DNA from: Ralstonia sp. A12
Lineage (GTDB): Bacteria > Pseudomonadota > Gammaproteobacteria > Burkholderiales > Burkholderiaceae
DNA: 64,000 nucleotides
NCBI RefSeq assembly: GCF_000801955.1
Contig: NZ_JSZO01000008.1
Location: forward strand, 229,567-293,566
Direction of reading: 5' to 3'
Part shown: positions 4,529 through 17,908 of the stretch, piece after piece
Position numbering within the stretch: position 1 is the first letter of the stretch
Layout: each line of letters starts with the position of its first letter
Notes under the pieces: model-generated
Seen by the model: only the letters and a program-made list of their open reading frames with translations
The model's database searches: none
What the model was told of the DNA's origin: nothing
Translations under genes and position numbers: made by a program

Positions 4529-5401
4529 TTAATGAATTTCGGCGGTGGCGGTCATAGCCAGCGCCCCATCTTCCTGGCGCACCCAGAGCGAGATCTGGGT
4601 GCCCGTCTTATCGCGCTTGCCGCACACCTGGAATCTCTGGCCTGAAAACGTCGGGCGCACGCCCTTGAACGTGAAACTGCGCACCAGCGCTGTGGGCAGT
4701 TCGCGGTGGACCAGATCCAAAAGCAGCGTGGCCAGCAGCGGCCCATGCACAATCAGGCCTGGATAGTGTTCAACATCGCGGCAATAGTCCGGGTCATAGT
4801 GAATTCGATGGCCGTTGAACGTAAGCGCCGAATAGCGATACAGCAGAACAGGGTCAGCCTCGATGTTGCGAGACCATTCCTCGTCGGTCGGTGCCAGTAC
4901 CGCCGCAGGTGGCGCTGCGTCGGGCGCCGCTGCTTCGCGGTACACGATGTCGTGCTGCTCGGTGATGGCGAGGCCGCGAGCGCTCGCATATTGGTGCTCC
5001 ACCGCCACGAACGCGAGCGAGCCACTCCGACCGCTCTTGGCTGTCACATCCAGAATGCGCGAATGCCGTGACGCCACCTCACCCACGCGCAGCGGCTGGT
5101 GGAATTGCAGTCGTCCGCCAGCCCACATACGGCGCGGCAATGGCACAGGCGGGAGAAATCCGCCGCGTTTCGGGTGGCCATCCTCACCGATTTCCGATTG
5201 GGGAGCGGGCTGTAGGAAGTACAGCCAATGCCAGAGCGGACGCACGGCATCGCCGCGCACAACCGGCGGCAGGCCGAGGTCCAGCGTTGCACCTAGAGCA
5301 CGCACCGGAAAAGCGGTGATCTCATCTTCGAACGATTCCGTACGGCCAATCCATTGGCGCAGCGTATCGATGTCCATGGCAGTTTCGAGAGTGAATTGCA
5401 T
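4529..5401 (-). CDS. ich: itaconyl-CoA hydratase-like MaoC/FAS1-dehydratase protein
   Basis: The 290-residue protein is a double hot-dog hydratase of the mesaconyl/itaconyl-CoA hydratase group. The C-terminal half shows the hydratase segment FNGHRIHYD at 195-203 followed by the YPGLIVHGPL stretch at 213-222, and the N-terminal half is the FAS1-like dehydratase domain. In the known pathway this enzyme hydrates itaconyl-CoA to citramalyl-CoA. Neighbouring CoA-transferase and CitE-like lyase genes complete that route, which supports the assignment; mesaconyl-CoA hydratase is the main alternative. The start at 5401 has a weak GAG upstream; a second Met at 5377 is possible and would put the operator-like site at 5438 the same distance away as at the other promoters. 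Confidence 0.72.
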   Translation of the reverse strand: MQFTLETAMDIDTLRQWIGRTESFEDEITAFPVRALGATLDLGLPPVVRGDAVRPLWHWLYFLQPAPQSEIGEDGHPKRGGFLPPVPLPRRMWAGGRLQFHQPLRVGEVASRHSRILDVTAKSGRSGSLAFVAVEHQYASARGLAITEQHDIVYREAAAPDAAPPAAVLAPTDEEWSRNIEADPVLLYRYSALTFNGHRIHYDPDYCRDVEHYPGLIVHGPLLATLLLDLVHRELPTALVRSFTFKGVRPTFSGQRFQVCGKRDKTGTQISLWVRQEDGALAMTATAEIH

Positions 5402-5437
5402 CGGACTCGACTATGCGCTCGACTCGCAACCCTTCAA

Positions 5438-5476
5438 ATTCCGAAGTTCGGAACACGCACTTCGCTTGTGCCGAAC
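5438..5476 (-). promoter_or_regulatory. operator-like site before the hydratase-dehydrogenase unit
   Basis: This 39-bp segment aligns without gaps to the sites at 8405-8443 and 17823-17861. Shared key bases are AT at 1-2, GAAC at 14-17, TTC at 24-26 and CGAAC at 35-39; I count 23 of 39 positions identical to the 17823 site. It also contains a perfect 7+1+7 inverted repeat (TTCCGAA and TTCGGAA). I infer binding by the LysR protein encoded at 8532-9470. Confidence 0.6.
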
Positions 5477-5584
5477 ACGGGCGGTCTCGCGTAGCGCTGA
5501 ACGGGGCGTTCGGAACTTCCGGATGGTCGCGCCCTCAAGGCTCTGCGACGATAGGGCCATCTGTTTCATCAGTGTTGATTCGGC

Positions 5585-6172
5585 ATGCACGTCCAGCTCC
5601 AATGCCGCACGCCCCTCCTGCTGCAGCGGCTTGTACCAGCCTTCCCGGTAACGCTCACTGCGTCGAATACCGGACATAGCATTCGCCAGCGTGGTTACCG
5701 GAGGTTGCTGCCGGTGGGCCACCCAGTGCGCGTACCCGCGTTCGAACCCTTCGACCTCCAACTTACCGGCGACACGTTCAATGCAACCGGCTGCGCTATC
5801 GAGCTCAACGAAGAAGAAGCCACTTCGCTGGAACCCGCTGCACAGGAGAAGGTATTGCCAGTGCTTGTATCAAGGCTGATTTTCCGAGAGCCGGATACGC
5901 CATGGAATGCGAAGTCCACCGCCACGACCCTAGGGATGGAGCCCGAGCGCCTGCGGGCGCTTTTGTTCGCCCGCGGCGCGGCGCTTAGTCAACTCTGCAG
6001 AACACAGCGCCTCATGCGCGCATTATTTGAATCGGCGCAGACGGAGATGCCGGTTGGGCATCTGAAGCGCCGCATCGGTTGGCCGGAAGCGCGCGACCTC
6101 GAAGTCACCTTCTATGAATGGTTCGGTGTTTCGTTACAAACAGTCGCGCGACTGCGTGAAGGTGGTCTCTGA
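5585..6172 (+). CDS. AraC-like regulator (probable)
   Basis: The plus-strand frame encodes 195 residues; its last 90 resemble the double helix-turn-helix of AraC proteins, with an LGM-ERLRALLFARG stretch, a QRLMRALFES helix and a terminal segment (ARDLEVTFYEWFGVS) matching the second recognition helix. The N-terminal half is not a recognisable ligand domain. The frame opens only six bases before the ATG, which fixes the start. It lies between two leftward itaconate-type genes, so it could be a local regulator of one unit or an inserted gene. No clear ribosome binding site is visible and a minus-strand frame covers part of the region, so confidence is moderate. Confidence 0.5.
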   Translation: MHVQLQCRTPLLLQRLVPAFPVTLTASNTGHSIRQRGYRRLLPVGHPVRVPAFEPFDLQLTGDTFNATGCAIELNEEEATSLEPAAQEKVLPVLVSRLIFREPDTPWNAKSTATTLGMEPERLRALLFARGAALSQLCRTQRLMRALFESAQTEMPVGHLKRRIGWPEARDLEVTFYEWFGVSLQTVARLREGGL

Positions 6173-6289
6173 AGACGGCAACGGGCGACCATGATGGTTA
6201 GCCCGCTCCAGAAGCGCGGGATGCAGATCCCCCACGCTACGGACTGTCTTCATGCTGGACGTACGTAGGATGGGAATCTCGTTCGGCGT

Positions 6290-7105
6290 TCACGGCGCCG
6301 ATTCGCCCGACTGACGCAACAGTTTTTCCGCACGCTGAATCACTGGGGCATCAACCATCTTTCCGTCGAGTTGGAACGCACCCGGGCTGAATTTCGCCTG
6401 TTCAAGCACACGTCGCGCCCACTCGATCTCGACCGGATTGGGGCTGAAAGCCTGGTTGGCCGTACCGACTTGGCTGGGATGAATGCAAAGCTTGGCGCCG
6501 AACCCGAGCCGTCGGCTTCGAACACAGGCAGCTCGCAGCACGTCTTCATTTCCAATTTCGAGCGTCACGCCATCAACCGGCGACTGGATCCCTGCCAGAG
6601 CAGATGCCAATACAAGCTGTGAACGGAACGTCAGCAGCTCCGCATCGTCGCCGTCAATGCCGAGCTCCGTGCGGAAATCGACGGTACCGAACACGAGCCG
6701 GTCCACACCTCGCCCTGCGGCAATCGCGTTGACATTGACCATACCGCGCGCCGTTTCGATCAGGGGCAACAACGGTACTGAGGAGAGGCGCGCACGTACC
6801 GCCGCAACGTCATCTTCAGTACTGGTCTTGGGCACGATTACAGCCTGCACCCCCGGCAGCGTACATAGTCTCAAGTCGTCATCGCACCAAGGTGTTTCGA
6901 GACTGTTGATGCGAACGATGCCGGCCCCTCCGCCAGCAAGGTAGTCGGCCAGATGGTGCCGGGCCGCGTTCTTGGCTTCCATCGACACCGCATCCTCCAA
7001 GTCCAGGATGACCGCATCCGCTCCTGCGGCCTGCGCCTTGGCAAAGCGCTCGGGGCGGTTGGCTGGAACGAAGAGGTAGGACCGGGCTGAGCGTTGATCA
7101 GTCAT
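6290..7105 (-). CDS. ccl: CitE-like (citramalyl-CoA) lyase
   Basis: The 271-residue protein is an HpcH/HpaI-CitE barrel. It has the N-terminal SYLFVPANRPERF segment, a DLEDAV metal/CoA motif near residue 39, IVPKT, LPLIETARG, and a C-terminal FGAKLCIHPSQV block. Family members split citryl-, malyl- or citramalyl-CoA; in the itaconate route the product is acetyl-CoA plus pyruvate. The ATG at 7105 is chosen because family similarity begins there; the frame upstream reads as non-protein sequence. It lies 46 bp downstream of the CoA-transferase gene, probably in the same transcript. The specificity for citramalyl-CoA is inferred from the neighbours. Confidence 0.78.
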   Translation of the reverse strand: MTDQRSARSYLFVPANRPERFAKAQAAGADAVILDLEDAVSMEAKNAARHHLADYLAGGGAGIVRINSLETPWCDDDLRLCTLPGVQAVIVPKTSTEDDVAAVRARLSSVPLLPLIETARGMVNVNAIAAGRGVDRLVFGTVDFRTELGIDGDDAELLTFRSQLVLASALAGIQSPVDGVTLEIGNEDVLRAACVRSRRLGFGAKLCIHPSQVGTANQAFSPNPVEIEWARRVLEQAKFSPGAFQLDGKMVDAPVIQRAEKLLRQSGESAP

Positions 7106-7151
7106 TGCGAGTGATTTCCAGGATGAACTGTGGTGCCGCGAGTCAACGTTG

Positions 7152-8330
7152 TCAGATCGCGCCAGCTTCCGCGAGTCGATCGATCTCGGTCTTGTCGTAG
7201 CCGAGTTCAGCCAGGATGGCCCGGCTTTGCTGGCCAAGAGCTGGCACACCATCCATGCGTGGTGCAAATGCGCCGGGCATGCCGGGCGGGTACAGGGCTG
7301 GGATCTCGCCGACGGGAGACGGAACGCTCGTCCACCGCCCGCGCGCCATGAGCTGCGGGTGGTTCCAGACGTCCTGCATATCGTTCATGCGTGCGTTGGC
7401 GATCTGTGCCCGCTCAAGCCGTTCGACCACGGCCTCGGCCGTCAGCGAAGCAAACGCCTCATGGATGAGCGCCGTCAGTGCCTCGCGGTTCCTGGCTCTC
7501 AGCGAATTCGCTGAGAAGCGCTCGTCGGTAGCCAACGCCGGCTGTTCAAGCACTACGCGGCAGAACACCTCCCATTCGCGCTCGTTCTGCAAGCCAAGGA
7601 TGACAGTCTTGCCATCGCCGGCCTTGAACGGACCATAGGGAAAAATGGTGGCGTGGGACGCACCGGCACGGGGCGGAGGTGCGGCACCCTCGTAGGCGTA
7701 GTACAGCGGGTAGGTCATCCACTCGACCATGCTCTCCAACATCGAGATGTCGATGTGCGCGCCTCGGTTGGTCTGATTGCGCTGCAGAAGTGCGCCCAGG
7801 ATATTCGTGTAGGCGTACATGCCAGCGGCGATGTCAGCAATCGAGCACCCGGCCTTGGAGGGCTGCTCCGCCGTGCCGGTGATCGACACAAAGCCGGACT
7901 CCGCCTGGATCAGCAGGTCATAGGCTTTCTTGTCGCGGTAGGGCCCGTCGTTGCCATAGCCAGAGATGTCACAGACGATCAGGCGTGGGCGAATCTTCGA
8001 CTGCGTCTCGTAGGACAAACCTAAGCGCTCTGCAGCGCCGGGGGCCAGGTTCTGTACCAGCACATCAGCCTTATCGAGCAGTGAATCCAAAATGGTCTGC
8101 GCCTGGGGATGCTTCAAATCCAGCGCAAGGCTTTCCTTCGAGCGATTGGTCCAGGCAAAGTGGGACGACAGGCCGTCCACGCGTTCGTCATACCCGCGCG
8201 CAAAGTCACCTACCTTGGGCCGCTCAACCTTAATGACGCGAGCGCCAAGATCAGCCAGCTGGCGCGTACAAAACGGCGCAGCGATTGCATGTTCGAGCGA
8301 AACTACAGTGATGCCATCGAGAGGACGCAT
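7152..8330 (-). CDS. ict: class III CoA-transferase (itaconate CoA-transferase candidate)
   Basis: The 392-residue protein belongs to the CaiB/BaiF/formyl-CoA transferase family. Similarity starts at MRPLDGITVV, so the start is set at 8330. The segment ADIAAGMYA places the expected nucleophilic Asp at residue 166, in the family position. In itaconate catabolism the enzyme moves CoA from succinyl-CoA to itaconate. It faces the LysR gene at 8532 across a 201-bp control region and leads the transcript that continues into the CitE-like lyase. The gene set resembles PA0878-PA0883 of Pseudomonas aeruginosa and ripABC of Yersinia. The exact acid accepted is inferred. Confidence 0.78.
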   Translation of the reverse strand: MRPLDGITVVSLEHAIAAPFCTRQLADLGARVIKVERPKVGDFARGYDERVDGLSSHFAWTNRSKESLALDLKHPQAQTILDSLLDKADVLVQNLAPGAAERLGLSYETQSKIRPRLIVCDISGYGNDGPYRDKKAYDLLIQAESGFVSITGTAEQPSKAGCSIADIAAGMYAYTNILGALLQRNQTNRGAHIDISMLESMVEWMTYPLYYAYEGAAPPPRAGASHATIFPYGPFKAGDGKTVILGLQNEREWEVFCRVVLEQPALATDERFSANSLRARNREALTALIHEAFASLTAEAVVERLERAQIANARMNDMQDVWNHPQLMARGRWTSVPSPVGEIPALYPPGMPGAFAPRMDGVPALGQQSRAILAELGYDKTEIDRLAEAGAI

Positions 8331-8404
8331 AGCGGGTATGAAGAGTCGAGCAAGGTCTGCGCGGCGGCGCAAGACTAGTCTCGGTTCATCGCTCGCGCTC
8401 GTAA

Positions 8405-8443
8405 ATCTCAAAAATGCGAACCACGCATTCAGCTCTATCGAAC
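8405..8443 (-). promoter_or_regulatory. operator-like site between CoA-transferase and lysR
   Basis: This is the copy of the 39-bp element in the divergent control region, 75 bp ahead of the CoA-transferase start. It matches the 17823-17861 copy at 32 of 39 positions by my count. It contains ATGCG-N5-CGCAT and the GAAC...TTC...CGAAC pattern. Its position between a LysR gene and its likely target is where LysR proteins normally bind. Confidence 0.65.
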
Positions 8444-8483
8444 ATCAGGTGAAGCAAACAGTCCGCACTCTGGTCATTGCCAA

Positions 8484-8512
8484 TTGCGAGCCTTTTCGCA
8501 GCTTGCTACAGT
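8484..8512 (+). promoter_or_regulatory. sigma-70-type promoter of the itaconate-locus lysR
   Basis: TTGCGA at 8484-8489 and TACAGT at 8507-8512 are separated by exactly 17 bp. The ATG of the LysR gene follows at 8532, preceded by GAGG, which implies a very short leader. A near copy of this promoter survives at 17881-17908 without a downstream gene. Confidence 0.6.
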
Positions 8513-8531
8513 GGCGCGCCGAGGAACCCAT

Positions 8532-9470
8532 ATGCACTTCGATTTCGCCGACTTACGATTGTTTTCACGTATCGCCGAGGAGCAGAACCTCTCTCGGGGC
8601 GCCCGGCGCGCGTTCCTATCACCGGCAGCAGCCAGCGCACGCCTGAAAGCATTGGAAGAACAACTCGGCACACGACTTTTCTACCGCGACAACAAGGGCC
8701 TCTCGCTCACGCCCGCCGGGGAAAAGCTACTGCGGCACGCCCGCGTGATCGAGCGCCAGTTCGAGCATGTTCGTAGTGATTTCGAAGAGTTCTCCAAGGA
8801 CGAGGTCGGGCATATCCGCATCTTCGCCAACACCACGGCGGTCACCGAATTCATGCCGGAGGTTCTGGCCACGTTCATGGCCGAGCGGCCCGCCGTGACG
8901 GTTGACCTACAAGAGCGACTGACTCGCGACATCATCCGCGGCGTGCTGGATGGCAGCGCGGACCTTGGCATCATCTCGGGCCCAGTCCAATCCGACGGGC
9001 TTGAAGTGGTGCATTTCAGCACTGACAAGCTCGTGCTCTGTACACCGATCGGGCACCCTCTGGCCACAGCCGATCGCGGCGTCGGATTCGCCGACACGCT
9101 GGACTATCCGCATGTGGGCCTCCACGAAGGCAGCACGCTACATGCGTTCCTCACAGAACTCGTGCGCGACCAGCGGCGCAAGCTGCAGATCCGTATTCAG
9201 GTCCGTAGCTTCGAGGCAATGTGCCGCATGATCGAAACCGGTGTGGGGATCGGTGTGGTGCCACTATCCGCTGCACTGCGGCACCGCAAGACCATGCAAC
9301 TTGAGCTTGTCGAACTGGCCGACGCCTGGGCCGTCCGAGAGCGTGCGGTCATCGCGCGCGATCTCGAGGGGCTTCCTGGTTGTGCGCGTGCGCTGATCGA
9401 TGAGTTGATCAAGGTGGCGCAGGCAGCCGGTGGCAGCGCTTCCATACCGTCGGACACCAGTTCGGATTGA
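8532..9470 (+). CDS. LysR-family regulator of the itaconate-type locus
   Basis: The 312-residue protein begins with a LysR helix-turn-helix (residues 4-62, including LSRGARRAFLSPAAASARLKAL) and continues into a periplasmic-binding-like effector domain (about 90-300). The start at 8532 is chosen because homology begins at MHFDF and GAGG lies upstream. It is divergent from the CoA-transferase gene, the usual layout for a LysR activator and target; itaconate-responsive LysR proteins (RipR/ItcR) are known at equivalent loci. I infer that it binds the shared 39-bp element seen at four promoters and responds to itaconate or a related acid. Confidence 0.85.
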   Translation: MHFDFADLRLFSRIAEEQNLSRGARRAFLSPAAASARLKALEEQLGTRLFYRDNKGLSLTPAGEKLLRHARVIERQFEHVRSDFEEFSKDEVGHIRIFANTTAVTEFMPEVLATFMAERPAVTVDLQERLTRDIIRGVLDGSADLGIISGPVQSDGLEVVHFSTDKLVLCTPIGHPLATADRGVGFADTLDYPHVGLHEGSTLHAFLTELVRDQRRKLQIRIQVRSFEAMCRMIETGVGIGVVPLSAALRHRKTMQLELVELADAWAVRERAVIARDLEGLPGCARALIDELIKVAQAAGGSASIPSDTSSD

Positions 9471-9501
9471 CACTAGTCAGCGCTTCAATGAATGCGCAGC
9501 G

Positions 9502-10395
9502 TTAGTCCACGCCGTCCACCTGGCACAAAATGCGATGGGCCAGGCGCAAGTGGGGTTGATCGATCATCCTGTCGCCCAGTCGAGCAACGCCAGACGCCCC
9601 ACCACTTGAGAACGCCGCCACAACGCTGCGCGCCCACTTGACCTCCTCGTCCTGCGGCAGGAACGCGCGATTGATGGCCTCGATGTGGGAAGGATGTGCC
9701 GCCGCCTTGGCGGTGAAACCGTCGCGCTTCGCCTGAGCGGCTTCCTGCTCGATCTGCTCGGGCATGGACAGACTCGTACTGACAGCATCGATGGCTTCGA
9801 TACCTGCCTGTGCCGCCGCCATCAGGCACATGGTTCGTGCCACGGAAAATGGTGCGGCGAGTTCGCGCCCTGTCTGTGACGAGAATGCCCCTAAATCTGC
9901 AGCCAGATCATCAACGCACCACATCAGAGCCCGCAAGCGCAACGACGCGTTTCTATAAGACGACAGGCCAAACACGCCTTCCGACGACTCTGTGGCCATC
10001 GCGATAATGCTTGTCTGCCACTCGCCGTTCAACATGGCGCACTCGAAGGCGGCCAGAAAATCGCTGAGACGATGGACGTCTTCGACGTTCCTGCATTTCG
10101 GTAGAACAATAGCGTTCGGGCGGTAAGGCATCACTGCCTTCAGGTCTTTCAGCAGGTGCCCGGAAGCCAGCCCATTCACACGTACCAGAAGCGCCGCGTG
10201 CATTGAGGTTCCGTGCGCGTCCAGGAACGTGGTGAGCTTGTGCCGGGCTTCGTCCTTTCCCCTTTCTGGCACCGAGTCCTCGAGATCGAATATCAGCCCG
10301 TCCGCCGGGGACTTCAGAGACGCGGCAAGCTTTCTCTCGCTGTCTGCAGGAACGAATAGCAGCGAGCGAAGGCGGGGTAGTGTGTCTGCGTACAT
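9502..10395 (-). CDS. second CitE-like HpcH/HpaI lyase
   Basis: This 297-residue CitE-family protein has LRSLLFVPADSERK at the N-terminus, FDLEDSV, a central IVLPKC strand and a C-terminal GFTAKAAAHPSHI block. It is clearly diverged from the lyase at 6290-7105 rather than a recent copy. The ATG at 10395 has GGAG about ten bases upstream, whereas the longer frame would need a TTG. It converges on the LysR gene and has its own upstream element at 10460-10498. It may act on the other citramalyl-CoA stereoisomer, on malyl-CoA or on a related thioester; sequence alone cannot decide. Confidence 0.78.
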   Translation of the reverse strand: MYADTLPRLRSLLFVPADSERKLAASLKSPADGLIFDLEDSVPERGKDEARHKLTTFLDAHGTSMHAALLVRVNGLASGHLLKDLKAVMPYRPNAIVLPKCRNVEDVHRLSDFLAAFECAMLNGEWQTSIIAMATESSEGVFGLSSYRNASLRLRALMWCVDDLAADLGAFSSQTGRELAAPFSVARTMCLMAAAQAGIEAIDAVSTSLSMPEQIEQEAAQAKRDGFTAKAAAHPSHIEAINRAFLPQDEEVKWARSVVAAFSSGGASGVARLGDRMIDQPHLRLAHRILCQVDGVD

Positions 10396-10459
10396 GTCGC
10401 TTGTCTCCGGAACTGTCAACGCGGGTCACCTAGTTTCGGGCGGTCACGCGTTCCGGTAA

Positions 10460-10498
10460 ATCTCGAATTTCCGATATAGACATTCACCAGAGCCAAAT
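10460..10498 (-). promoter_or_regulatory. weaker copy of the shared operator-like element
   Basis: The first eight bases (ATCTCGAA) are identical to the 17823 copy and the TTC at 24-26 is kept, but the second half is poor; I count about 20 of 39 matches. It lies 65 bp before the second CitE-like gene, a spacing close to the 60-75 bp at the stronger sites. This is inferred to be a low-affinity member of the same regulon. Confidence 0.4.
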
Positions 10499-10563
10499 AC
10501 GCAGGAGGCTGCTCTGCTGTGGAAGAAGGTGCTTAAGGTGGCTTAGGAAGCCACCCAACCGTC

Positions 10564-11982
10564 TCACCTGTACTCCTCTGCCTTCCCTTGCTTGCCAATA
10601 CGTAGCACGCTGAACAGGCTTGAGCATGCCGCAATTGCCGTGGCCATCCACAGTACGCCATGCATGACGGCGTCGCCGTCGAGTCCCAGGCGCTGCGCAG
10701 GTATAGCCATTGTTGCCATCATGACAGCGACAATGGCCGCCCCCAACGACTGCCCCAGCACCCGCGCGGTGGACAAGATGCCCGATGCTGCCCCGCTCAG
10801 CGACTTGGGCACGCTACTCAGCATCTCCCGGTTATTGGGTGCCTGAAACAGCCCGAAGCCAAGACCGCAGAGGGCGAGCCTCCACAAAATGTCGTGGATG
10901 GCCGGCTGCGCACCGAGGAGCGCGGTGGCTGCCAATCCGATGGCGAAGATCGCTGTGCCGATGCTCGATACGACAGTGCCGTCGAATCTATCAGCCAGCC
11001 GCCCCGCCAGCGGCGCGGCAAACACCACCGTGAGCGGCCACGGTGTAAACAGCAGTGCCGATGCAATCGCACTGCGCCCATACGTCGCCTGAAACAAGAA
11101 CGGCAGCGCGACAAACGCAAGCCCTTGCGCCGTGAACGATGCCAGCGAAGTCACGGCTGCCAACGAGAAGCGACTAGACGCGAAGATGGCCAATGGCAGT
11201 AAGGGTGCGGATGCCGCCCGCTGCGACCGGTAGAACAGCACCCCCGTCAGCAAACTGACCGCAGCCAGCAAACCGACAACCTGACTGGGCCAGCGCCCCG
11301 CTTGGTCGACTGCCGTAACGAGTGCAACCAGTGCGATGGTCGAAAGCACTGCGCCCCTTGCGTCGAACCCGCCGCCAGTTTCGTGATCGGGCGGCAGGTT
11401 GCGCCAAGCCAAGCCGATCGCCAACATGCCAAGGGGCAGATTGACAAGGAAGAGCCAGGGCCAGCCCAGCCCGGTCACGATCACACCACCCACCGTCGGC
11501 CCGGCTACCGTACCTACCGCCACCACGAGTGCATTGATACCGAGAATCGACCCAAGTAGATGCGCGGGGTAGATCCGCCGATACATACCAATACCGATGC
11601 TCACAATCGCGGCATAACAGAGGCCCTGTGCGGCACGAAACGCTACGAGCCACGCTAGCGACCCGGACATGGCGCAACCCAAGGACGTAACGGTGAACAC
11701 AGCCAGCCCCGCTACATAGACCCTCTTGCGGCCGACTACGCCGCCAAAAGCGGCGAAGCTCATCATGGTTGCCGCGCCGGCAATATGGTACGCATTGGCC
11801 ACCCAGATCACGGCCGACACCGACACCTCCAGATCGCGGGCGATGGTCGGCAGCGCCACGTTGACGATGGATGCATCCAGCGCCCCCATGAACACCCCCG
11901 CTAGGATCGCAAGCGCAGCGAACACCCGCTGGGGGACGGGAAGACCATCGAGGGTTGCATCATGGGTCAGAGCGTTGGGCAT
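10564..11982 (-). CDS. MFS transporter, DHA2 (EmrB/QacA) type
   Basis: The 472-residue protein has about fourteen hydrophobic segments. It carries the DHA2 N-terminal signature (LDASIVNVALPTIARDL) and the helix-5 motif-C region (TVAGPTVGGVI). Such pumps export drugs or organic acids using the proton gradient. It directly follows the alpha/beta hydrolase gene and so probably ends the leftward unit that starts with the ThDP decarboxylase. I prefer the ATG at 11982; a GTG at 11991 next to the upstream stop is the alternative. The exported compound is unknown and could be a product or toxic intermediate of this operon. Confidence 0.85.
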   Translation of the reverse strand: MPNALTHDATLDGLPVPQRVFAALAILAGVFMGALDASIVNVALPTIARDLEVSVSAVIWVANAYHIAGAATMMSFAAFGGVVGRKRVYVAGLAVFTVTSLGCAMSGSLAWLVAFRAAQGLCYAAIVSIGIGMYRRIYPAHLLGSILGINALVVAVGTVAGPTVGGVIVTGLGWPWLFLVNLPLGMLAIGLAWRNLPPDHETGGGFDARGAVLSTIALVALVTAVDQAGRWPSQVVGLLAAVSLLTGVLFYRSQRAASAPLLPLAIFASSRFSLAAVTSLASFTAQGLAFVALPFLFQATYGRSAIASALLFTPWPLTVVFAAPLAGRLADRFDGTVVSSIGTAIFAIGLAATALLGAQPAIHDILWRLALCGLGFGLFQAPNNREMLSSVPKSLSGAASGILSTARVLGQSLGAAIVAVMMATMAIPAQRLGLDGDAVMHGVLWMATAIAACSSLFSVLRIGKQGKAEEYR

Positions 11983-11991
11983 CGCTGGCAC

Positions 11992-12645
11992 TCAGATGCC
12001 CGCCGGGGCGGCGCGCTTCATGTGGGCGTAGTCCGTCACCAAGCGGCCAAGAACGCCAAGCTTGCCCGTGAAGAAATGATTGGCGCCCGGCACCACGACC
12101 ACCGGCAGCCCCTGCGGCCGCGCCCAGTCGAATACGGCAGTAGGCGACACGCGCTCATCCTGCTCGCCATGAATCACCAGCGTGTCGGCGGGAACGGGCG
12201 GCGTTTCGTAGGTGCGCTGGCCGTCGACCGTGCCCCAAGGCGTGCCAGCCAGTATCAGGCCATCCTGCGTGACGCTTTCGCGCGTCAAGGCAGCCGCGGC
12301 GTGTGCCATGACGAAAGCGCCGAAGGAAAACCCCGCCAACAGGAGTTGGCCCGCGTACGCCTGCCGGCAGTACCGAATGACTTCAAGCAGGTCTCCAACC
12401 TCGCCTAGCCCGCCATCGTGCACACCTTCTGACCGGCCGACGCCCCGAAAGTTGGGGCGCACCACCACGTAGCCGCAGGCGAGCAGCGCTTTGGCCATCT
12501 GATGCGGCACCTTGTGGCTGGCAGACCCGCCCTGCAACGGGTGCGGGTGGGCCACCACAGCAACACCCAGTGGGGTGTACGCCGGGACATCGATCAATAC
12601 TTCAATGTTTCCTGCCAACCCCGCCAGCAAGGTGGTTTCAGTCAT
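11992..12645 (-). CDS. small alpha/beta hydrolase
   Basis: The 217-residue protein matches the short COG2945-like hydrolases. It has HPHPLQGGS near residues 33-41 (oxyanion region), the nucleophile elbow GFSFG near residues 104-108, an acid in the VIHGEQDE strand and a late His in PGANHFF. All three catalytic residues are present. The gene lies 31 bp after the aldehyde dehydrogenase gene and 9 bp before the transporter start, so it is part of the operon. The substrate is probably an ester or thioester but cannot be named. Confidence 0.8.
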   Translation of the reverse strand: MTETTLLAGLAGNIEVLIDVPAYTPLGVAVVAHPHPLQGGSASHKVPHQMAKALLACGYVVVRPNFRGVGRSEGVHDGGLGEVGDLLEVIRYCRQAYAGQLLLAGFSFGAFVMAHAAAALTRESVTQDGLILAGTPWGTVDGQRTYETPPVPADTLVIHGEQDERVSPTAVFDWARPQGLPVVVVPGANHFFTGKLGVLGRLVTDYAHMKRAAPAGI

Positions 12646-12676
12646 GGATTGAGCTCCGATGCTTGCGCACCGTAGC

Positions 12677-14146
12677 TTATCGGATCGTGAACGGATTGCC
12701 TGTCGCCGCGCCGATGTTCACCCACACGCTCTTCGTTTGCAGATAACTCTGGATAGCGACCATGCCGTTTTCGCGCCCGAGACCCGAATCCTTGTAGCCG
12801 CCGAACGGCGACATGAAGCTCACGGCTCGATACGTGTTCACCCAGACGGTGCCCGCCTCGATGCGCTGAGGCACGCGGAATGCGCGGCCAATGTCGGATG
12901 TCCACACGCCAGCACCAAGTCCATAGCAACTGTCGTTGGCTATCGCAACAGCTTCATCCTCGTCTTTGAATCGCAGAATGGACAGCACGGGGCCGAACAC
13001 CTCTTCCTGTGCAATGCGCATCTTGGGCGTGACGCCGGTGAAGATCGTCGGCTCGACAAACCATTTTCCGCTTTCCGGTGCAGGACGGCCACCGCAGACG
13101 AGTTGTGCGCCCTCTCCCTGCGCGATGCCGATGTAGGAAAGCACCTTCTCATACTGCGCGGGCGTGGTGATGGGGCCCACCTGCGTGTCGGGCTGCGTCG
13201 GATCGCCGCGCTTGGCGGTCTTCGCGAGCGCCAACAAGCGCTCGATGAAGGCGTCATGAATCTCGTCCTGCAGCAGCAGCCGCGATCCCGCAATGCAGGT
13301 TTGTCCAGTGGCAGCGAAGATGCCTGACACCGCGCCGTTGACAGCATCATCCAGATTGGCATCGCTGAAGACGATGTTCGGCGACTTGCCGCCGAGCTCA
13401 AGGCTGACGTGCTTGAACTGCGCCGCGCACTGCTGATTGATGATGCGGCCTGTGGCATCCGATCCGGTGAACGTGACCTTTTTAACCTTGGGGTGGGTCA
13501 CAAGTGCAGAGCCGATGTCTGCTCCAAAGCCCGTTACCACGTTGAAGACGCCCGGCGGAAAGCCGGCCTCTTCGAACAGTTTGGCAAGCTCCAACGTCGA
13601 TGCCGACGTGAACTCGGAAGGCTTGGCCACAACCGTGCACCCGGCTGCCAACGCTGGCGCGATCTTCCAAGCCAACAGCATCAACGGCGAGTTCCATGGC
13701 GTGATGGCCGCGACCACACCGAGCGGCTCCGCGCGGGTGTAATTGAAGTAGCCCTTCTTGTCGAGCGGGATGACGGCGCCTTCAATCTTGTCCGCCAGGC
13801 CGCCGAAGTAGTAGAACCACTGCGGCAGGTAGTTTACTTGCGCGCGCATTTCGGCCAGCAGCTTGCCGTTGTCACGCACTTCGGTTTGTGCGAGGCGTTC
13901 GGCATCGCGCGTGATCAGGTCGCCCAGCTTCCGCAGGAGCGCGCCGCGCTGCGTGCAGGTCAACTCCGCCCACGGACCCGAGCGGAACGCGCGGTCCGCA
14001 GCCTCCACAGCGCGTTCGACATCTGCAGGCGTGGCGCGGGCAACCATCGCCCAGGGCTCGCCCGTGTATGGGTTGTGCGTTTCAAACCAGCGCCCATCGC
14101 TCGCGGGAGCGTGGGCGCCATCGATGAGCATTGGGTACTGCTGCAT
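12677..14146 (-). CDS. NAD(P)-dependent aldehyde dehydrogenase
   Basis: The 489-residue protein has all core aldehyde dehydrogenase parts: the ITPWNSPLML cofactor strand, FTGSDATGR, the general-base segment LELGGKSPN and the nucleophile segment GQTCIAGSR, plus a C-terminal PFGGYKDSGLGRENG. The ATG at 14146 is preferred to an upstream TTG. It sits 31 bp after a two-subunit 2-oxoacid decarboxylase, so the natural reading is that it oxidises the aldehyde made by that enzyme to an acid. Its closest known relatives include betaine-, vanillin- and hydroxymuconic-type aldehyde dehydrogenases, which do not narrow the substrate. Confidence 0.88.
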   Translation of the reverse strand: MQQYPMLIDGAHAPASDGRWFETHNPYTGEPWAMVARATPADVERAVEAADRAFRSGPWAELTCTQRGALLRKLGDLITRDAERLAQTEVRDNGKLLAEMRAQVNYLPQWFYYFGGLADKIEGAVIPLDKKGYFNYTRAEPLGVVAAITPWNSPLMLLAWKIAPALAAGCTVVAKPSEFTSASTLELAKLFEEAGFPPGVFNVVTGFGADIGSALVTHPKVKKVTFTGSDATGRIINQQCAAQFKHVSLELGGKSPNIVFSDANLDDAVNGAVSGIFAATGQTCIAGSRLLLQDEIHDAFIERLLALAKTAKRGDPTQPDTQVGPITTPAQYEKVLSYIGIAQGEGAQLVCGGRPAPESGKWFVEPTIFTGVTPKMRIAQEEVFGPVLSILRFKDEDEAVAIANDSCYGLGAGVWTSDIGRAFRVPQRIEAGTVWVNTYRAVSFMSPFGGYKDSGLGRENGMVAIQSYLQTKSVWVNIGAATGNPFTIR

Positions 14147-14177
14147 GGCGGCGCGGTCCAAAAAAACGATGAACGAA

Positions 14178-14774
14178 TTACAGCGGGGCGAAGCCCAGGT
14201 GTTGACGGAAACGGTTCTTCACGAACACGCCATCGCGCGGCGGCAGTGCACGCTGGCATTCCTCTGACGAGATGTACACCTGCGCGAGCGTCATCCCTTG
14301 GCGACGCTTGATGACTTCTACCAGTTCACCGACCTGCTCTGCGGATGAAATCTCCAGCGTGTTGGGCACGCCGAATGCCTTGGCAGCCGCAGCCAGGTTC
14401 GCACCCAGGCTCGTGTGGCTCTGCTGCATGCCGGTCTCGCCAAAGTGGCCGTTGTCCAGCACGACAACGGCCAGGTTGTCCGGACGCTGAGCAGCCGCGG
14501 TGGCGATGCTGCCCACGCCCATCAGTTGCTCGCCATCGCCGGTGATAGCGATGACCTGTTTGTCCGGCTGGGCAACTGCCAAGCCCAGAGCCACCGAAGT
14601 CGATCCGCCCATAGCGCCCCACAGGTAGAAATTGCTGGGGCGGTCGCCAGCGGCAAACACGTCGTAGGACGGTGAGCCGAGACCAGTCACAACCAGGGCA
14701 TCGGGAAACTGCTTGAGCAGCGCCGCCACGAAGGCCCGGCGGTCGATCGTACGTTGTTGAGTCGAGGTCGTCAT
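14178..14774 (-). CDS. ThDP-dependent decarboxylase, beta (PP-domain) subunit
   Basis: This 198-residue protein is a stand-alone pyrophosphate-binding domain. The ThDP motif runs from GDG at 79-81 to Asn108 in VVLDNGHFGETG, and GAMGGSTSVALGLA precedes it. Its size and pairing with a separate PYR subunit fit sulfopyruvate or phosphonopyruvate decarboxylase (ComE-like), which convert a 2-oxoacid to an aldehyde. The ATG at 14774 begins five bases after the alpha-subunit stop, suggesting coupled translation; a GTG 18 bases upstream is possible. No other genes of sulfonate or phosphonate metabolism are visible nearby, so the 2-oxoacid is unknown. Confidence 0.82.
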   Translation of the reverse strand: MTTSTQQRTIDRRAFVAALLKQFPDALVVTGLGSPSYDVFAAGDRPSNFYLWGAMGGSTSVALGLAVAQPDKQVIAITGDGEQLMGVGSIATAAAQRPDNLAVVVLDNGHFGETGMQQSHTSLGANLAAAAKAFGVPNTLEISSAEQVGELVEVIKRRQGMTLAQVYISSEECQRALPPRDGVFVKNRFRQHLGFAPL

Positions 14775-14779
14775 GATGT

Positions 14780-15313
14780 TCAGCGAATCCACTTTTTACG
14801 GCCAATGAGACTTTGGGAGAGCAGCACAGCCACGCGCTGGCCTGCATCGAATGCGGATACCAAGCCCGCATCAATGATCTCCGCTGCGTCTTCCGGTCGG
14901 TCAACGCGATAGACGGTGATACCCATCAGTTCGAGCGCGCGCTGCGTTGCGAGCCCCATGGGGGCTTGCCACGGGTTGAACTCGGCGTACTCACCGCGCA
15001 TGGTCACGATGGTCATGAACGGAAAGCGGCAGCTATCCAGCAGCGAGAACATGTTCACGCAATTGCCCACCCCACTGCTCTGCATCAGCAGCACAGCGCG
15101 CTGACCGCCGAGCCATGCGCCGCTCACAACGCCTACGCCCTCCTCCTCGGTCGTCAGGACGATGTCTCGAATGTCAGGGTCGGCGATCGCACGCTTGATG
15201 ACATGGGAATGCCCGGCGTCGGGCACATAGGCAACTTGCTCGACGTCGCGCTGCTTCAGTACCTGGAAGATGTCTTCATGCCAGGTCAGATGATCAGATG
15301 TGGGGTGATTCAT
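14780..15313 (-). CDS. ThDP-dependent decarboxylase, alpha (PYR-domain) subunit
   Basis: The 177-residue protein is a stand-alone PYR domain like ComD. It has AYVPDAGHSHVI and TTEEEGVGVVSGAW (the Glu that activates the thiazolium ring is expected among residues 56-58), then an LLMQSSGVGNCVN loop. It needs the following beta subunit to form an active site. It is first in the leftward operon, reading away from the LysR gene at 15438, with a palindrome between them. The decarboxylase-dehydrogenase order suggests conversion of a 2-oxoacid through an aldehyde to the acid one carbon shorter. Confidence 0.82.
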   Translation of the reverse strand: MNHPTSDHLTWHEDIFQVLKQRDVEQVAYVPDAGHSHVIKRAIADPDIRDIVLTTEEEGVGVVSGAWLGGQRAVLLMQSSGVGNCVNMFSLLDSCRFPFMTIVTMRGEYAEFNPWQAPMGLATQRALELMGITVYRVDRPEDAAEIIDAGLVSAFDAGQRVAVLLSQSLIGRKKWIR

Positions 15314-15387
15314 GGCGGTTCAGTGGGTTGATGGAACTGCGGAATGAATCATAGAATTGACTGGCAAGCTTTCTGAAATACAATTAT

Positions 15388-15423
15388 TTGATGGCTCAAT
15401 CACCGCTTGCGATAAGCCATCAA
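15388..15423. promoter_or_regulatory. LysR-type palindrome between decarboxylase operon and lysR
   Basis: Perfect 9-bp arms, TTGATGGCT at 15388-15396 and AGCCATCAA at 15415-15423, are separated by 18 bp in the divergent intergenic region. Part of the right arm with its flank (GATA, GCCATCAA, then GGCT) recurs near 19053-19073 ahead of the binding-protein gene. It is the probable site of the LysR protein encoded at 15438. Confidence 0.55.
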
Positions 15424-15437
15424 GAGGCTCACCCAGC

Positions 15438-16367
15438 ATGGACATCAGGCAATTACGCGCGCTTCTGGCCGTAGCGGAAACGGGCAGCGCCACCAAGGCT
15501 GCAGAGATGTTGCGCATCGTCCAGCCTGCGGTATCACGGCACATCCGGTTGCTGGAGGAGGAGTTCGGCGTCGAGTTGTTCGGCCGCGAGCGGCACGGCA
15601 TGGTGCTGACCGAGGCCGGCAAGACACTGGCGGAATATGGGCGGCGTGCGCTGCAGGAACTCGATCGCGCGCGAGCCGAAATCAAGCCGTCGAGCGGCGC
15701 GATCACCGGCACCGCGTCGCTAGGCTTGTTACCGAGCACATGCGAGCTGCTGGCGCCAGAACTGGTGGCTGCGATCAAGAACAAGCATCCGGCGTTGGTC
15801 GTGCGTCTCACTGCCGGCTATGCCGGCAACCTAGTGCAATGGTTGGAGGCGGGCGATGTGGACGTTGCATTGCTCTACGATGTGAAATCCAGTGCGGGCC
15901 TGCACCTGGAGCCGTTGTTGGATGAACGCCTCTATCTGGTTGGCCCGCCGGGCAGCGTGGCGCTGGACGACGTGCATGATGTCGCAGCGCTGCAAAACCT
16001 GCCGCTGATCCTGCCAAACGCGCCACATGGCCTGCGAACGGTCGTGGAACACGCCTGTGCCGTGGCCGGTATTACGCCAACGGTCGCGGTCGAGACCAAC
16101 TCGCTAAATCTGCAGAAATCCCTCGTAGCCGCTGGCTTTGGCTATACCGTCCTACCCACATCCGCCGTGTCAGAGGAAATCGCCAGCGGCGCGCTCGCTG
16201 CGGCCCCGCTGGATTCGCCGGACCTTTCGCGCCGCATCGTCTTGGCAAAACTCATGACGCGACGGGTGTCGCCAGCGGCCAACGTCGCCTCGTTGGAGCT
16301 TGTGGCGCTTGCGCGGCGACTCGTACTGAGCGGCGCTTGGCCGGGCGCGAGCTGGGTCGGTACGTAG
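15438..16367 (+). CDS. LysR-family regulator of the decarboxylase-dehydrogenase operon
   Basis: The 309-residue protein starts MDIRQLRALLAV, a typical LysR beginning, with the helix-turn-helix around residues 17-40 (SATKAAEMLRIVQPAVSRHI) and an effector domain from about 92. The start is set where homology begins. It is divergent from the ThDP decarboxylase operon across 124 bp holding a perfect palindrome, so regulation of that operon is the simplest inference. It resembles the NAC/CynR-like branch of LysR proteins, but the inducer is not predictable. Confidence 0.87.
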   Translation: MDIRQLRALLAVAETGSATKAAEMLRIVQPAVSRHIRLLEEEFGVELFGRERHGMVLTEAGKTLAEYGRRALQELDRARAEIKPSSGAITGTASLGLLPSTCELLAPELVAAIKNKHPALVVRLTAGYAGNLVQWLEAGDVDVALLYDVKSSAGLHLEPLLDERLYLVGPPGSVALDDVHDVAALQNLPLILPNAPHGLRTVVEHACAVAGITPTVAVETNSLNLQKSLVAAGFGYTVLPTSAVSEEIASGALAAAPLDSPDLSRRIVLAKLMTRRVSPAANVASLELVALARRLVLSGAWPGASWVGT

Positions 16368-16404
16368 CCCGTCGCGCCGGAAAAGCTGTTCGCTCGACCG
16401 TCGG

Positions 16405-17763
16405 TCAAAACAGCCTGAAACGGGTATTCCGCTCAACCTCGCCCGATCCATCCAGATAACCATGCTTGCCCAGATCAGGCAGCGCCACAGAGGCAAGAAA
16501 CCCGACTGCGGCAAGGACCGCGACATACACGAAAAAGTACCACTCGATGTGAGCGGAACGCAACGCTAGTGCAACGTACTCCGCGGTGCCGCCAAACGCG
16601 GCGTTGGCCAAGGCATAGGGCAAGCCGACGCCCAGCGCGCGCACCGAGGACGGAAACAGATCGGCCTTCACTAGGCCGGCAATCGGCGTGTAGAAGCACG
16701 AGATGAGCAGGCCCCCTGTGACCAAGGCAAACGCTGCGTAAGGGTTAGAGACCGACTTGAGCGCAAACAGGATGGGTGCGACCAACACGGATGCCAGCCC
16801 TGTAAACAGCAGCATGTGCGCTCGAATGCCAAGACGATCCGCCAGCATGCCGAACAGTGGTTGGCAGAGCATGAAACAGACCAGTGACGCGGTCATCACC
16901 ACGCTGACGGTCTCGGCGCTCATGCCTGTCGACACCACCAGAAACTTCTGCATGTAGGTTGTGAACGTGTAGAAGTACAGAGAACCACCGCCGGTAAACG
17001 CGAGTACCAGCAGAACTGCCCTCTTGTGCTTGAGCAAACCGCGGATGGAGCCCGCCTCCTTGCTTTTCATGCCGGTTCTGGAGGCTGTCTCGATCATGGA
17101 ACGCCGCAGATAGACCACGACCACCGAACTGATGGCCCCCATGAAGAAGGGGATACGCCAGCCCCACGCCTTCAACTCCGCGATACTCAGTGTGTGCTGC
17201 AGCGTCACGACAGTCAGCAACGCCAGCAGTTGGCCAGCAATGATCGTGAAGTATTGGAATGAGCCGAAAAAGCCGCGGTTTCCCCGTGAGGAGGCTTCGC
17301 TCAAGTAGGTCGCGCCAGCTCCATACTCCGCGCCAACCGACAACCCTTGGATGAGACGCGCCACCACCAGCAAGATCGGCGCAAGCATGCCAATGGACTG
17401 ATACGTCGGCAGCACCGCGATCATCATCGACCCGCCGCACATCATGAAGACGGCAATGATCATCGATATCTTGCGGCCGCGCGTGTCGGCAATCCAGCCG
17501 AACAGCCAGCCGCCTAGCGGCCGCATGAAGAAGCCCGCAGCGAACACGCCCGCGGTCGAAAGCAGCTGGCTCAGTTGATCACCGCTTGGAAAAAACGCAG
17601 ACGCGAAGTAGATCGCGGTGTAGGCGTAGACGAAGAAGTCGAACCATTCCACCAAATTGCCGGAGCATGCTCCGATGATTCCGCGAACACGTTGGGATCT
17701 TTGGGCGGCGGCTGGGCGAGCAGACGCGCCATCGGCGGTAACGCCGATGTCTTCATGCAACAT
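16405..17763 (-). CDS. MFS transporter, metabolite:H+ symporter (KgtP-like)
   Basis: The 452-residue protein has twelve predicted membrane segments and the hallmark N-terminus of the MHS family (GNLVEWFDFFVYAY at about residues 35-48, then FMRPLGGWLFG and DTRGRK). This family imports alpha-ketoglutarate, citrate, shikimate and related acids with protons. The ATG at 17763 has AGGAG upstream. A copy of the 39-bp itaconate-regulon element lies 60 bp before the start, so I infer that it imports itaconate or another C4-C5 dicarboxylate, even though it is 8 kb from the catabolic genes. It converges on the LysR gene at 15438. Confidence 0.85.
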   Translation of the reverse strand: MLHEDIGVTADGASARPAAAQRSQRVRGIIGACSGNLVEWFDFFVYAYTAIYFASAFFPSGDQLSQLLSTAGVFAAGFFMRPLGGWLFGWIADTRGRKISMIIAVFMMCGGSMMIAVLPTYQSIGMLAPILLVVARLIQGLSVGAEYGAGATYLSEASSRGNRGFFGSFQYFTIIAGQLLALLTVVTLQHTLSIAELKAWGWRIPFFMGAISSVVVVYLRRSMIETASRTGMKSKEAGSIRGLLKHKRAVLLVLAFTGGGSLYFYTFTTYMQKFLVVSTGMSAETVSVVMTASLVCFMLCQPLFGMLADRLGIRAHMLLFTGLASVLVAPILFALKSVSNPYAAFALVTGGLLISCFYTPIAGLVKADLFPSSVRALGVGLPYALANAAFGGTAEYVALALRSAHIEWYFFVYVAVLAAVGFLASVALPDLGKHGYLDGSGEVERNTRFRLF

Positions 17764-17822
17764 CACTGTCTCCTGGTCTTTTTTAGTAGGTACCAGTCTC
17801 GGGCTATCGCCCTGGCCGGACA

Positions 17823-17861
17823 ATCTCGAAAATGCGAACCGCGCGTTCGGTGCTACCGAAC
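17823..17861 (-). promoter_or_regulatory. operator-like site before the MHS permease
   Basis: This is the best-conserved copy of the shared element. Inside it CGAAC-N5-GTTCG forms a perfect inverted repeat, and GCGTTCGGT/ACCGAACGC (17843-17851 and 17855-17863, 3-bp loop) is a perfect 9-bp inverted repeat. The likeness to the site at 8405-8443 (32 of 39) links this distant transporter to the itaconate-type locus. Confidence 0.65.
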
Positions 17862-17880: not shown

Positions 17881-17908
17881 TTGCGAGCCCCGCACAGCCT
17901 GCTACAGC
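17881..17908 (+). promoter_or_regulatory. vestigial lysR-type promoter
   Basis: TTGCGA and TACAGC are separated by 16 bp, and the flanking bases also match the real lysR promoter at 8484-8512. No LysR frame follows; the sequence runs instead into the 3' end of the leftward binding-protein gene. I read this as the leftover of a lysR gene once divergent from the permease. Confidence 0.45.

What the first reader, a model, noticed from the sequence alone, without database searches (positions are those of the whole stretch)
5438..17861. One 39-bp element marks four promoters and ties a distant permease to the itaconate-type locus
Sites at 5438, 8405 and 17823 align ungapped over 39 bp (32/39 between the last two, 23/39 for the first against 17823), and a weaker copy lies at 10460 (about 20/39). 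All point the same way and lie roughly 40-75 bp before leftward genes: the hydratase, CoA-transferase, second lyase and MHS permease. Shared GAAC, TTC and CGAAC words fall at fixed spacing. This defines a candidate regulon including a probable itaconate importer located 8 kb away, with unrelated genes between.
Basis: partly seen in the sequence, partly recalled or inferred. Interest (0 to 1): 0.72.

Follow-up and report, generated by a model that had tools for sequence, protein, structure and literature searches.

The report
One operator marking swapped acid importers
In a Ralstonia genome, five copies of one 39-bp DNA element sit before itaconate-type breakdown genes, a small regulator-like gene and a transporter gene more than 7 kb away, and in related bacteria the same element sits before unrelated transporters; it is likely the docking site of one regulator, and those transporters would be the importers of the same kind of acid.

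Summary
In detail: 32/39, 23/39 and 20/39 are exact. There are five sites, not four: 5486-5524 (minus) faces a divergent HTH gene. In the 6.1-Mb genome only these five stand clear of chance. The element lies upstream of itaconyl-CoA hydratase genes in 63 of 63 held-out loci that have one, at fixed spacing to a -10-like xAxxxT in 68 of 76 unique sites. It is most likely the operator of the P. aeruginosa-type ItcR LysR regulator. It marks different transporters: an MHS permease here, TTT binding proteins in four of six Cupriavidus loci seen, an MFS carrier in Pseudomonas insulae, and in Pseudomonas the TRAP binding protein of the known itaconate importer. Corrections: the permease promoter is a duplicate of the regulator's divergent promoter, so those two sites are not independent; the genes between are not unrelated, since ALDH/TPP/LysR genes recur beside this pathway. 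Binding, inducer and transported substrate are untested. Ordinary as a LysR regulon; of interest because it names testable itaconate importers where print says none is known.

The parts
5438..5476 (+). Element 1, before the leftward hydratase and acyl-CoA dehydrogenase genes; -35-like TTTGAA 5433-5438, -10-like CATAGT 5410-5415 (read on minus strand)
5486..5524 (-). Element 5 (new), inverted, 9 bp from element 1, faces rightward gene 5585-6172; -35-like TGGTCG 5524-5529, -10-like GACGAT 5547-5552
   Evidence: equivalent site in R. soli L004:2828-2866 minus
8405..8443 (+). Element 2 between the divergent LysR and CoA-transferase genes; -35-like TTTACG 8400-8405, -10-like GAGACT 8377-8382 for the leftward gene
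10460..10498 (+). Element 4 (weakest) before second lyase; -35-like TTTACC 10455-10460, -10-like GAAACT 10432-10437
17823..17861 (+). Element 3 before MHS permease, near-perfect 17-bp palindrome GTTCGGTAGCACCGAAC read on the minus strand; -35-like TTGTCC 17818-17823, -10-like GAGACT 17795-17800
8484..8512 (+). Predicted rightward promoter of the LysR gene, TTGCGA N17 TACAGT
   Evidence: sequence; conserved block; block also in R. soli
17881..17908 (+). Likely relic of the LysR promoter (TTGCGA N16 TACAGC) beside the permease, pointing at no rightward gene
   Evidence: 47-column second block, 0 of 2963 random window stretches score as high
8532..9470 (+). LysR-type regulator, P. aeruginosa ItcR type (65.5% to the P. 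aeruginosa protein beside the hydratase gene)
7152..8330 (-). Class III CoA-transferase (Ict-like)
6290..7105 (-). CoA ester lyase (Ccl/RipC-like; best NCBIfam NF038242, below its cut-off)
4529..5401 (-). Itaconyl-CoA hydratase-like (PDB 8khg, E 4e-77)
3348..4520 (-). Acyl-CoA dehydrogenase, methylsuccinyl-CoA dehydrogenase-like (79% to the P. aeruginosa counterpart)
   Evidence: function of PA0879 from PMC9875883 passages
5585..6172 (+). 195-aa protein with weak AraC-type HTH
   Evidence: below cut-offs
9502..10395 (-). Second CoA ester lyase
   Evidence: start from sequence
16405..17763 (-). MHS-type permease, KgtP-like (NF007710 582 bits, cut-off 550; 60% to E. coli kgtP)
12677..16367 (.). 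Aldehyde dehydrogenase, two-subunit TPP decarboxylase and second LysR gene: recurring neighbours of the pathway

Best explanation
The 39-bp element is likely the operator of the adjacent P. aeruginosa-type ItcR regulator (LysR family), and through it one inducer would switch on the itaconate/methylsuccinate breakdown genes and the MHS permease that likely imports the same acid. Shown: five copies in the window; a 17-bp palindromic part (GTTCRGC-N3-GCYGAAC in Pseudomonas) at the gene-distal end; a fixed -10-like hexamer 17 bp past a -35-like hexamer that overlaps the gene-proximal end; recurrence at the same genes in Ralstonia, Cupriavidus and Pseudomonas; different transporter types marked in different lineages. 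Inferred: the LysR protein binds as a tetramer, the palindrome being its recognition site and the gene-proximal half its activation site; the inducer (itaconate, mesaconate or similar) shifts it to touch RNA polymerase at the -35; the permease is an itaconate/branched C5-dicarboxylate proton symporter; it came under control when the regulator's divergent promoter was copied in front of it.
For: Window: five sites, gap to the next best place, leave-one-out statistics, genome-wide uniqueness. Conservation: the five-site window matrix finds 58 sites of at least 14 bits in 44 of 80 loci against a mean of 1.56 (maximum 13) for 100 column-shuffled matrices; of 75 hits of at least 12 bits, 72 precede a hydratase (35), TRAP binding protein (24), CoA-transferase (5), TTT binding protein (4), the HTH gene (2), second lyase (1) or MFS carrier (1). 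In 64 loci not used for the 30-site matrix: upstream of the hydratase in 63 of 63, of the TRAP binding protein in 27 of 54, and in 0 of 61 each of CoA-transferase, lyase and dehydrogenase; 104 hits against a mean of 1.5 (maximum 12) for 60 shuffled matrices. Geometry: xAxxxT at one offset in 68 of 76 unique sites, 30 of 37 after thinning (next best offset 7), 5 of 5 in the window. Regulator: present in 80 of 80 loci by construction; the HTH protein in only 4 of 80 and LysR2 in 4 of 80 at set bit thresholds, so neither can be the common binder. In 150 family genomes the 3 with the regulator have 4, 2 and 3 sites at E up to 0.01; of the other 147, 8 have one and none has two. Known importer marked: in P. 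aeruginosa the element precedes the hydratase gene (20 bits) and the TRAP binding-protein gene (15 bits), whose product IctP belongs to the proven itaconate importer (PMC12599236, abstract and passages). A genome scan hit outside the cluster in Cupriavidus sp. LEh25, not used in training, lies before a second TTT binding-protein gene. Permease linkage independent of the element: the orthologue is inside the cluster in Cupriavidus sp. IDO (79%) and in Haematobacter (67%).
Against: No binding, expression or transport data. Site 10460 alone is within chance for a whole genome. The five-site matrix finds nothing of 12 bits in 25 of 80 loci, and the five-site profile R1 missed both P. aeruginosa sites at E up to 1; the 30-site profile finds them at E 3.8e-5 and 0.097. 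Of the 104 held-out hits 14 are neither before a hydratase nor a TRAP gene, 5 of those overlapping another site. In Cupriavidus sp. IDO the permease orthologue has no element before it at 14 bits or within E 1. In the stretches of two further Cupriavidus records (L145, L146) no TTT gene is marked and only TTT homologues of about 34% are seen. R. soli has the regulator and sites, but its only other hit (E 0.31) is near no transporter by eye. A 78% permease orthologue sits in G082 with no regulator orthologue at E 1e-110 and no other locus gene within its 3.5-kb locus. Half (27 of 54) of the held-out TRAP genes lack the element and are presumably read from the hydratase promoter. Eight regulator-free genomes have a single site at E 0.003-0.009, more than the 1.5 expected. 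The window regulator is only distantly similar (51 bits) to the ItcR whose itaconate-bound structure is known.
Confidence: 0.82

Rival explanations
1. The permease carries the element only because its promoter was copied by segmental duplication; the copy need not be functional and the permease need not carry the pathway's substrate.
For: The permease upstream region matches the LysR/CoA-transferase intergenic region over 69 aligned positions (54 identical) plus a second block with the LysR promoter.
Against: The copied operator half is the best palindrome of the five (7 of 8 pairs; the others 3, 4, 4, 2), the -10/-35 spacing is kept, and permease orthologues sit in itaconate-type clusters in Cupriavidus sp. 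IDO and Haematobacter without a marked promoter.
Confidence: 0.12
2. Another regulator binds the element: the 195-aa HTH protein at 5585 or LysR2 at 15357.
For: Both are in the neighbourhood; the HTH gene itself carries a site.
Against: HTH gene in 4 and LysR2 in 4 of 80 loci, while the element is widespread in Pseudomonas loci that lack both.
Confidence: 0.05
3. The permease serves the ALDH/TPP group (importing a 2-oxo dicarboxylate) and not itaconate uptake; shared control reflects a pathway feeding into itaconate or methylsuccinate.
For: KgtP-like sequence; in Haematobacter the permease is next to the LysR/TPP/ALDH group as well as the CoA genes.
Against: In the window the permease carries the operator of the CoA-pathway genes and no element is found before the TPP/ALDH genes; the P. 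aeruginosa importer under the same element is a proven itaconate importer (PMC12599236).
Confidence: 0.2
4. Chance similarity in G+C-rich promoters.
For: 10460 alone is not significant genome-wide.
Confidence: 0.01

Closest known systems
P. aeruginosa itcR with the PA0878-PA0886 itaconate/methylsuccinate cluster (PMC9875883, PMC8526614, PMC12290011; passages seen)
   Same: Orthologous regulator (65.5%), hydratase (48%), CoA-transferase (71%), dehydrogenase (79%), lyase (46%); same element before the hydratase and TRAP binding-protein genes
   Different: One catabolic operon plus a linked TRAP importer there; here five separately marked promoters and an MHS permease away from the core genes. 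The passages of these papers that I saw describe no operator
IctPQM TRAP itaconate importer (PMC12599236)
   Same: Binding-protein gene carries the same element (15 bits)
   Different: A TRAP system, not of the MHS permease or TTT families marked here
E. coli KgtP, alpha-ketoglutarate permease
   Same: 60% identity over 84% of the query; NF007710 above cut-off (that this model is the KgtP subfamily is recalled)
   Different: The own genome has another, 58% identical gene of this kind elsewhere; the window gene's close orthologue is linked to itaconate-type genes
C. necator itaconate cluster with adjacent TTT binding protein of unknown function, E6A55_22575 (PMC12290011, section 6 read)
   Same: TTT binding-protein genes carry the element in the four Cupriavidus loci
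   Different: The gene E6A55_22575 itself was not examined
ItcR with solved itaconate-binding domain (PDB 7w06-7w08; PMC9636186 passages) and Salmonella RipR (PMC9637912 passages)
   Same: LysR regulators of itaconate genes
   Different: Only 51 bits to 7w06; RipR was found to bind isocitrate

Membership tests
LysR-type regulator operator | LysR-type gene next to and divergent from a target, site in between | tested here: met
   8405-8443 between 8330 and 8532; Pfam PF00126 and PF03466
LysR-type regulator operator | Palindromic recognition site with T-N11-A | tested here: met
   T-N11-A in 4 of 5 window sites (not 5486; read from the sequences printed); mean 5.1 of 8 palindromic pairs over 37 thinned sites, the highest at any of 40 offsets. 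The label is recalled knowledge
LysR-type regulator operator | Activation half next to -35, fixed distance to -10 | tested here: met
   sequence only, no start site mapped
LysR-type regulator operator | Protein binds and activates with inducer | not testable with these tools
   needs gel shift or reporter
P. aeruginosa-type ItcR | Orthology and synteny with the regulator beside the itaconyl-CoA hydratase gene | tested here: met
   65.5% over 95% of the query; hydratase directly divergent in P. aeruginosa
P. aeruginosa-type ItcR | Responds to itaconate | not testable with these tools
   reported for P. aeruginosa itcR in PMC8526614 (passage seen)
ItcR of PDB 7w06-7w08 | Close sequence relationship | tested here: not met
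   51 bits, ranked behind 14 other LysR-family sequences
Itaconate/methylsuccinate degradation cluster | CoA-transferase, itaconyl-CoA hydratase, citramalyl-CoA lyase and methylsuccinyl-CoA dehydrogenase homologues | tested here: met
   homology only:
Itaconate/methylsuccinate degradation cluster | MmgE/PrpD methylsuccinate isomerase | not tested
   not searched for
KgtP subfamily of MHS permeases | NCBIfam NF007710 above cut-off | tested here: met
   582.1 against 550; the model's link to KgtP is recalled
Itaconate importer | Transports itaconate | not testable with these tools
   inferred from shared operator and linkage

The most novel reading that the evidence does not exclude
One operator acts as a movable address: across Ralstonia, Cupriavidus and Pseudomonas it has captured four different transporters of three unrelated kinds (MHS permease and another MFS carrier, TTT system, TRAP system) for one class of acid. 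In the Ralstonia/Cupriavidus/Haematobacter form the pathway is larger than known: the KgtP-like permease imports a branched 2-oxo dicarboxylate such as 4-methyl- or 4-methylene-2-oxoglutarate, the two-subunit TPP enzyme and aldehyde dehydrogenase turn it into methylsuccinate or itaconate, and the CoA pathway finishes it.
Probability: 0.15. Interest if true: 0.7.

Novelty: new member of a known kind. Interest (0 to 1): 0.5.

Why it matters
[quoted passage not shown] necator has no homologue of the P. aeruginosa importer and that its neighbouring TTT binding protein has no known function (PMC12290011). The operator gives a sequence rule that picks out likely importers in several lineages and could help find further ones. 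It also predicts that the P. aeruginosa importer genes have their own regulator-dependent promoter; one study predicted a single PA0878-PA0886 operon (PMC9875883), another two (PMC8526614).

Tried and rejected
The 2018 itaconic-acid biosensor paper is not held, so what it says of the operator was not seen. Plasmid collection for a Ralstonia match to name the species: none in the rows and tallies shown. Element in Haematobacter L147, which has the same gene set with other regulators: none at E up to 1, best place 11 bits.

Considered and rejected: chance; HTH195 or LysR2 as binder; the lone site 10460 as proof. The own-genome places below the five were taken as chance: C16:16722 with E 1.2 and six with E 0.18-3.05, one of them the reverse twin of the fifth site; four of these loci were compared with the locus proteins, the others not. 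Of 24 hits with E below 0.01 in 12 genomes, 21 lie in the regulator loci (many were used to build the model) and 3 elsewhere: one before a second TTT gene (L113), one before a LysR paralogue with 49% identity (L114), one (G154:C171:125684) not examined. Nor were the 8 single hits in regulator-free genomes examined; they may be operators of paralogues such as the one at L114.

Dropped before a count: three hits (L005:6849, L007:16896 minus, L018:9956 minus, taken as opposite-strand or shifted readings of other sites) before the 76 unique sites; 16 loci that supplied training sites before the held-out test. The held-out loci are relatives of the training loci (nearly all Pseudomonas and Stutzerimonas), so they are not independent samples.

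Literature searches behind 'operator not seen in print': open-licence papers only, listings plus the passages cited.
Full report
What was checked. A matrix scan of both strands finds a fifth site, 5486-5524 on the minus strand, 9 bp from the 5438 site and facing the divergent gene 5585-6172. Exact background statistics put four of the five leave-one-out scores beyond chance for the window, while 10460 is marginal (0.06 expected).

Genome-wide test. A 39-position profile of the five sites, searched in the own 6.1-Mb genome, gives the five (E 3.4e-6 to 1.1e-4) and then E 1.2 (150 of 822 candidates scored). A 30-site profile gives the same five (E 4.8e-5 to 0.04) and then E 0.18 (150 of 2156 scored). 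The element is not spread at random frequency. The five were used to build both models, so the informative part is the gap below them.

Organism. G010, which holds a 90% identical regulator on a contig as long as that of Ralstonia soli L004, is in the same genus as the window genome, so the window is Ralstonia. The regulator occurs in 2 of 16 genomes of the genus, the own one included: a patchy, accessory locus.

Anatomy. Read toward the gene, each site is a 17-bp palindromic part (GTTCGGTAGCACCGAAC at the permease; T-N11-A in four of five window sites), then 22 bp ending in a half-site whose last base begins a -35-like hexamer; 17 bp further is xAxxxT. Over 76 unique sites from the window and relatives this -10-like pattern is at that one offset in 68; after thinning to 37 sequences, in 30, with the next best offset at 7. 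The palindrome score is highest at this register of 40 tried; individual window sites keep 7, 4, 4, 3 and 2 of 8 pairs. This is the layout expected of a LysR regulator (general knowledge), and it puts the whole promoter, not only a 39-bp word, under conservation.

Conservation. Eighty loci were fetched with an alignment of the regulator (Ralstonia soli, four Cupriavidus, Pseudogulbenkiania, one unnamed gammaproteobacterium; the rest Pseudomonas and Stutzerimonas). The five-site window matrix finds 75 places of at least 12 bits in 55 of 80; 72 of 75 precede a hydratase (35), TRAP binding protein (24), CoA-transferase (5), TTT binding protein (4), HTH gene (2), second lyase (1) or MFS carrier (1); the other three are two reverse-strand or shifted twins and one hydratase site assigned to another frame. 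Twenty-five loci have no such place. Column-shuffled matrices give 1.56 hits at 14 bits against 58. A 30-site matrix tested on the 64 loci that gave no training site finds the element before the hydratase in 63 of 63, before the TRAP binding protein in 27 of 54, and before CoA-transferase, lyase and dehydrogenase in 0 of 61 each; 14 of its 104 hits lie elsewhere, 5 of these overlapping another site.

Which protein binds. The regulator at 8532-9470 is in 80 of 80 loci by construction; the HTH protein is in 4 of 80 and LysR2 in 4 of 80, so only the former can explain the element in Pseudomonas. Many residues of its N-terminal DNA-binding domain are invariant in a 16-sequence alignment whose other members are 64-95% identical to the first. 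Among 150 genomes of the family, the three with the regulator hold 4, 2 and 3 sites at E up to 0.01; of the other 147, eight hold one each and none two (stricter filters, at most 44 candidates scored in a genome). Its P. aeruginosa counterpart is 65.5% identical and lies beside the hydratase gene; the regulator upstream of that operon, itcR, is reported as inducible by itaconate, mesaconate and aconitates (PMC8526614, passage). The window regulator is only remotely similar to the ItcR of known structure.

The permease. It is KgtP-like. A 79% orthologue lies inside the itaconate-type cluster of Cupriavidus sp. IDO, and a 67% one in Haematobacter massiliensis between ALDH/TPP/LysR genes and dehydrogenase/CoA-transferase/hydratase/lyase genes. 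Its upstream region is homologous to the LysR/CoA-transferase intergenic region over 69 aligned positions (54 identical) and again over a 47-column block that contains the regulator's predicted promoter, here pointing at no gene. So the operator probably reached the permease by duplication of the divergent promoter, and 8405 and 17823 are not independent sites. Counter-examples: the orthologue in Cupriavidus sp. IDO has no element of its own, R. soli has no marked transporter that I could see, and G082 has an orthologue without the regulator.

Swapped transporters. The element precedes TTT binding-protein genes (PF03401) in the four Cupriavidus loci and, in a genome scan, a second such gene on another contig of Cupriavidus sp. 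LEh25. In the stretches of two further Cupriavidus records (L145, L146) no TTT gene is marked. It precedes DctP-type TRAP binding proteins (PF03480) in Pseudomonas, P. aeruginosa included, where this is the proven itaconate importer (PMC12599236 abstract and passages); the P. aeruginosa sites are found by the window matrix (20 and 15 bits) and the 30-site profile (E 3.8e-5 and 0.097) but not by the five-site profile. It precedes an MFS carrier in P. insulae. TTT orthologues of at least 86% exist in all four of these Cupriavidus genomes and, at E up to 1e-90, in none of the window genome, R. soli, P. insulae, Pseudogulbenkiania, P. fluorescens PS723 or S. stutzeri 24a13. MHS orthologues near 79% exist only in the window genome and Cupriavidus sp. 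IDO among the same ten; the others have at most 60%. The operator is thus kept while the transporter changes.

The genes between. They are not unrelated: ALDH, two TPP subunits and LysR2 flank the regulator in the four Cupriavidus loci and in two further Cupriavidus records, and homologues stand with the permease in Haematobacter. The TPP subunits resemble sulfopyruvate decarboxylase below the curated cut-offs. No element is found before them. A feeder pathway into methylsuccinate or itaconate is my inference.

Comparison with print. PMC12290011 (abstract, passages and section 6 seen) shows that the five-gene cluster serves methylsuccinate as well and says the function of the TTT protein beside the C. 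necator cluster is unknown. PMC9875883 (passages seen) assigns the P. aeruginosa genes and predicted one PA0878-PA0886 operon with a 112-bp gap; the element sits in the corresponding gap of the P. aeruginosa record. PMC8526614 (passages seen) shows PA0884-PA0886 as a separate predicted operon expressed like the catabolic genes. I found no operator for this regulator in the open-licence papers searched (listings and passages only); the 2018 biosensor paper could not be read.

Verdict. As a kind it is a LysR regulon; its interest is the rule that it gives for finding the importers.

Noticed in passing
window 12677-16367; L005-L008, L145, L146, L147: Aldehyde dehydrogenase, two-subunit TPP decarboxylase and second LysR gene recur beside the itaconate-type cluster in Ralstonia, Cupriavidus and the alphaproteobacterium Haematobacter: a possible feeder pathway.
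   Followed up: partly
L004:4235-7771, L145:8241-11690, L146:8129-11578: A 1149-1178-aa ORF that looks like pyruvate carboxylase (read by eye) lies between the HTH gene and the first lyase; pyruvate is a product of the pathway. The window has no room for it there.
   Followed up: no
L008:6087-7628, L146:6340-7908: A large ORF that looks like citrate lyase alpha/CitF (read by eye) follows the HTH gene in Cupriavidus, so element 5 may drive an operon there.
   Followed up: no
L114 (G156:C30): A strong element copy precedes a LysR paralogue with 49% identity, facing an enoyl-CoA hydratase-like ORF (by eye); perhaps a related operator.
   Followed up: partly
L144:5926-5964: In P. aeruginosa an element sits between the lyase and TRAP binding-protein genes, suggesting a separate promoter for the importer genes.
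   Followed up: partly
L146:11620-14908 and 18643-20111: Lyase, CoA-transferase, LysR and ALDH matches in Cupriavidus sp. EM10 come in several frames, as if the record had frameshifts.
   Followed up: no
window 19699-22361: Class V aminotransferase-like gene next to a GltP glutamate/aspartate symporter, beyond an ABC glutamate-type binding-protein gene at 17954-18850.
   Followed up: no
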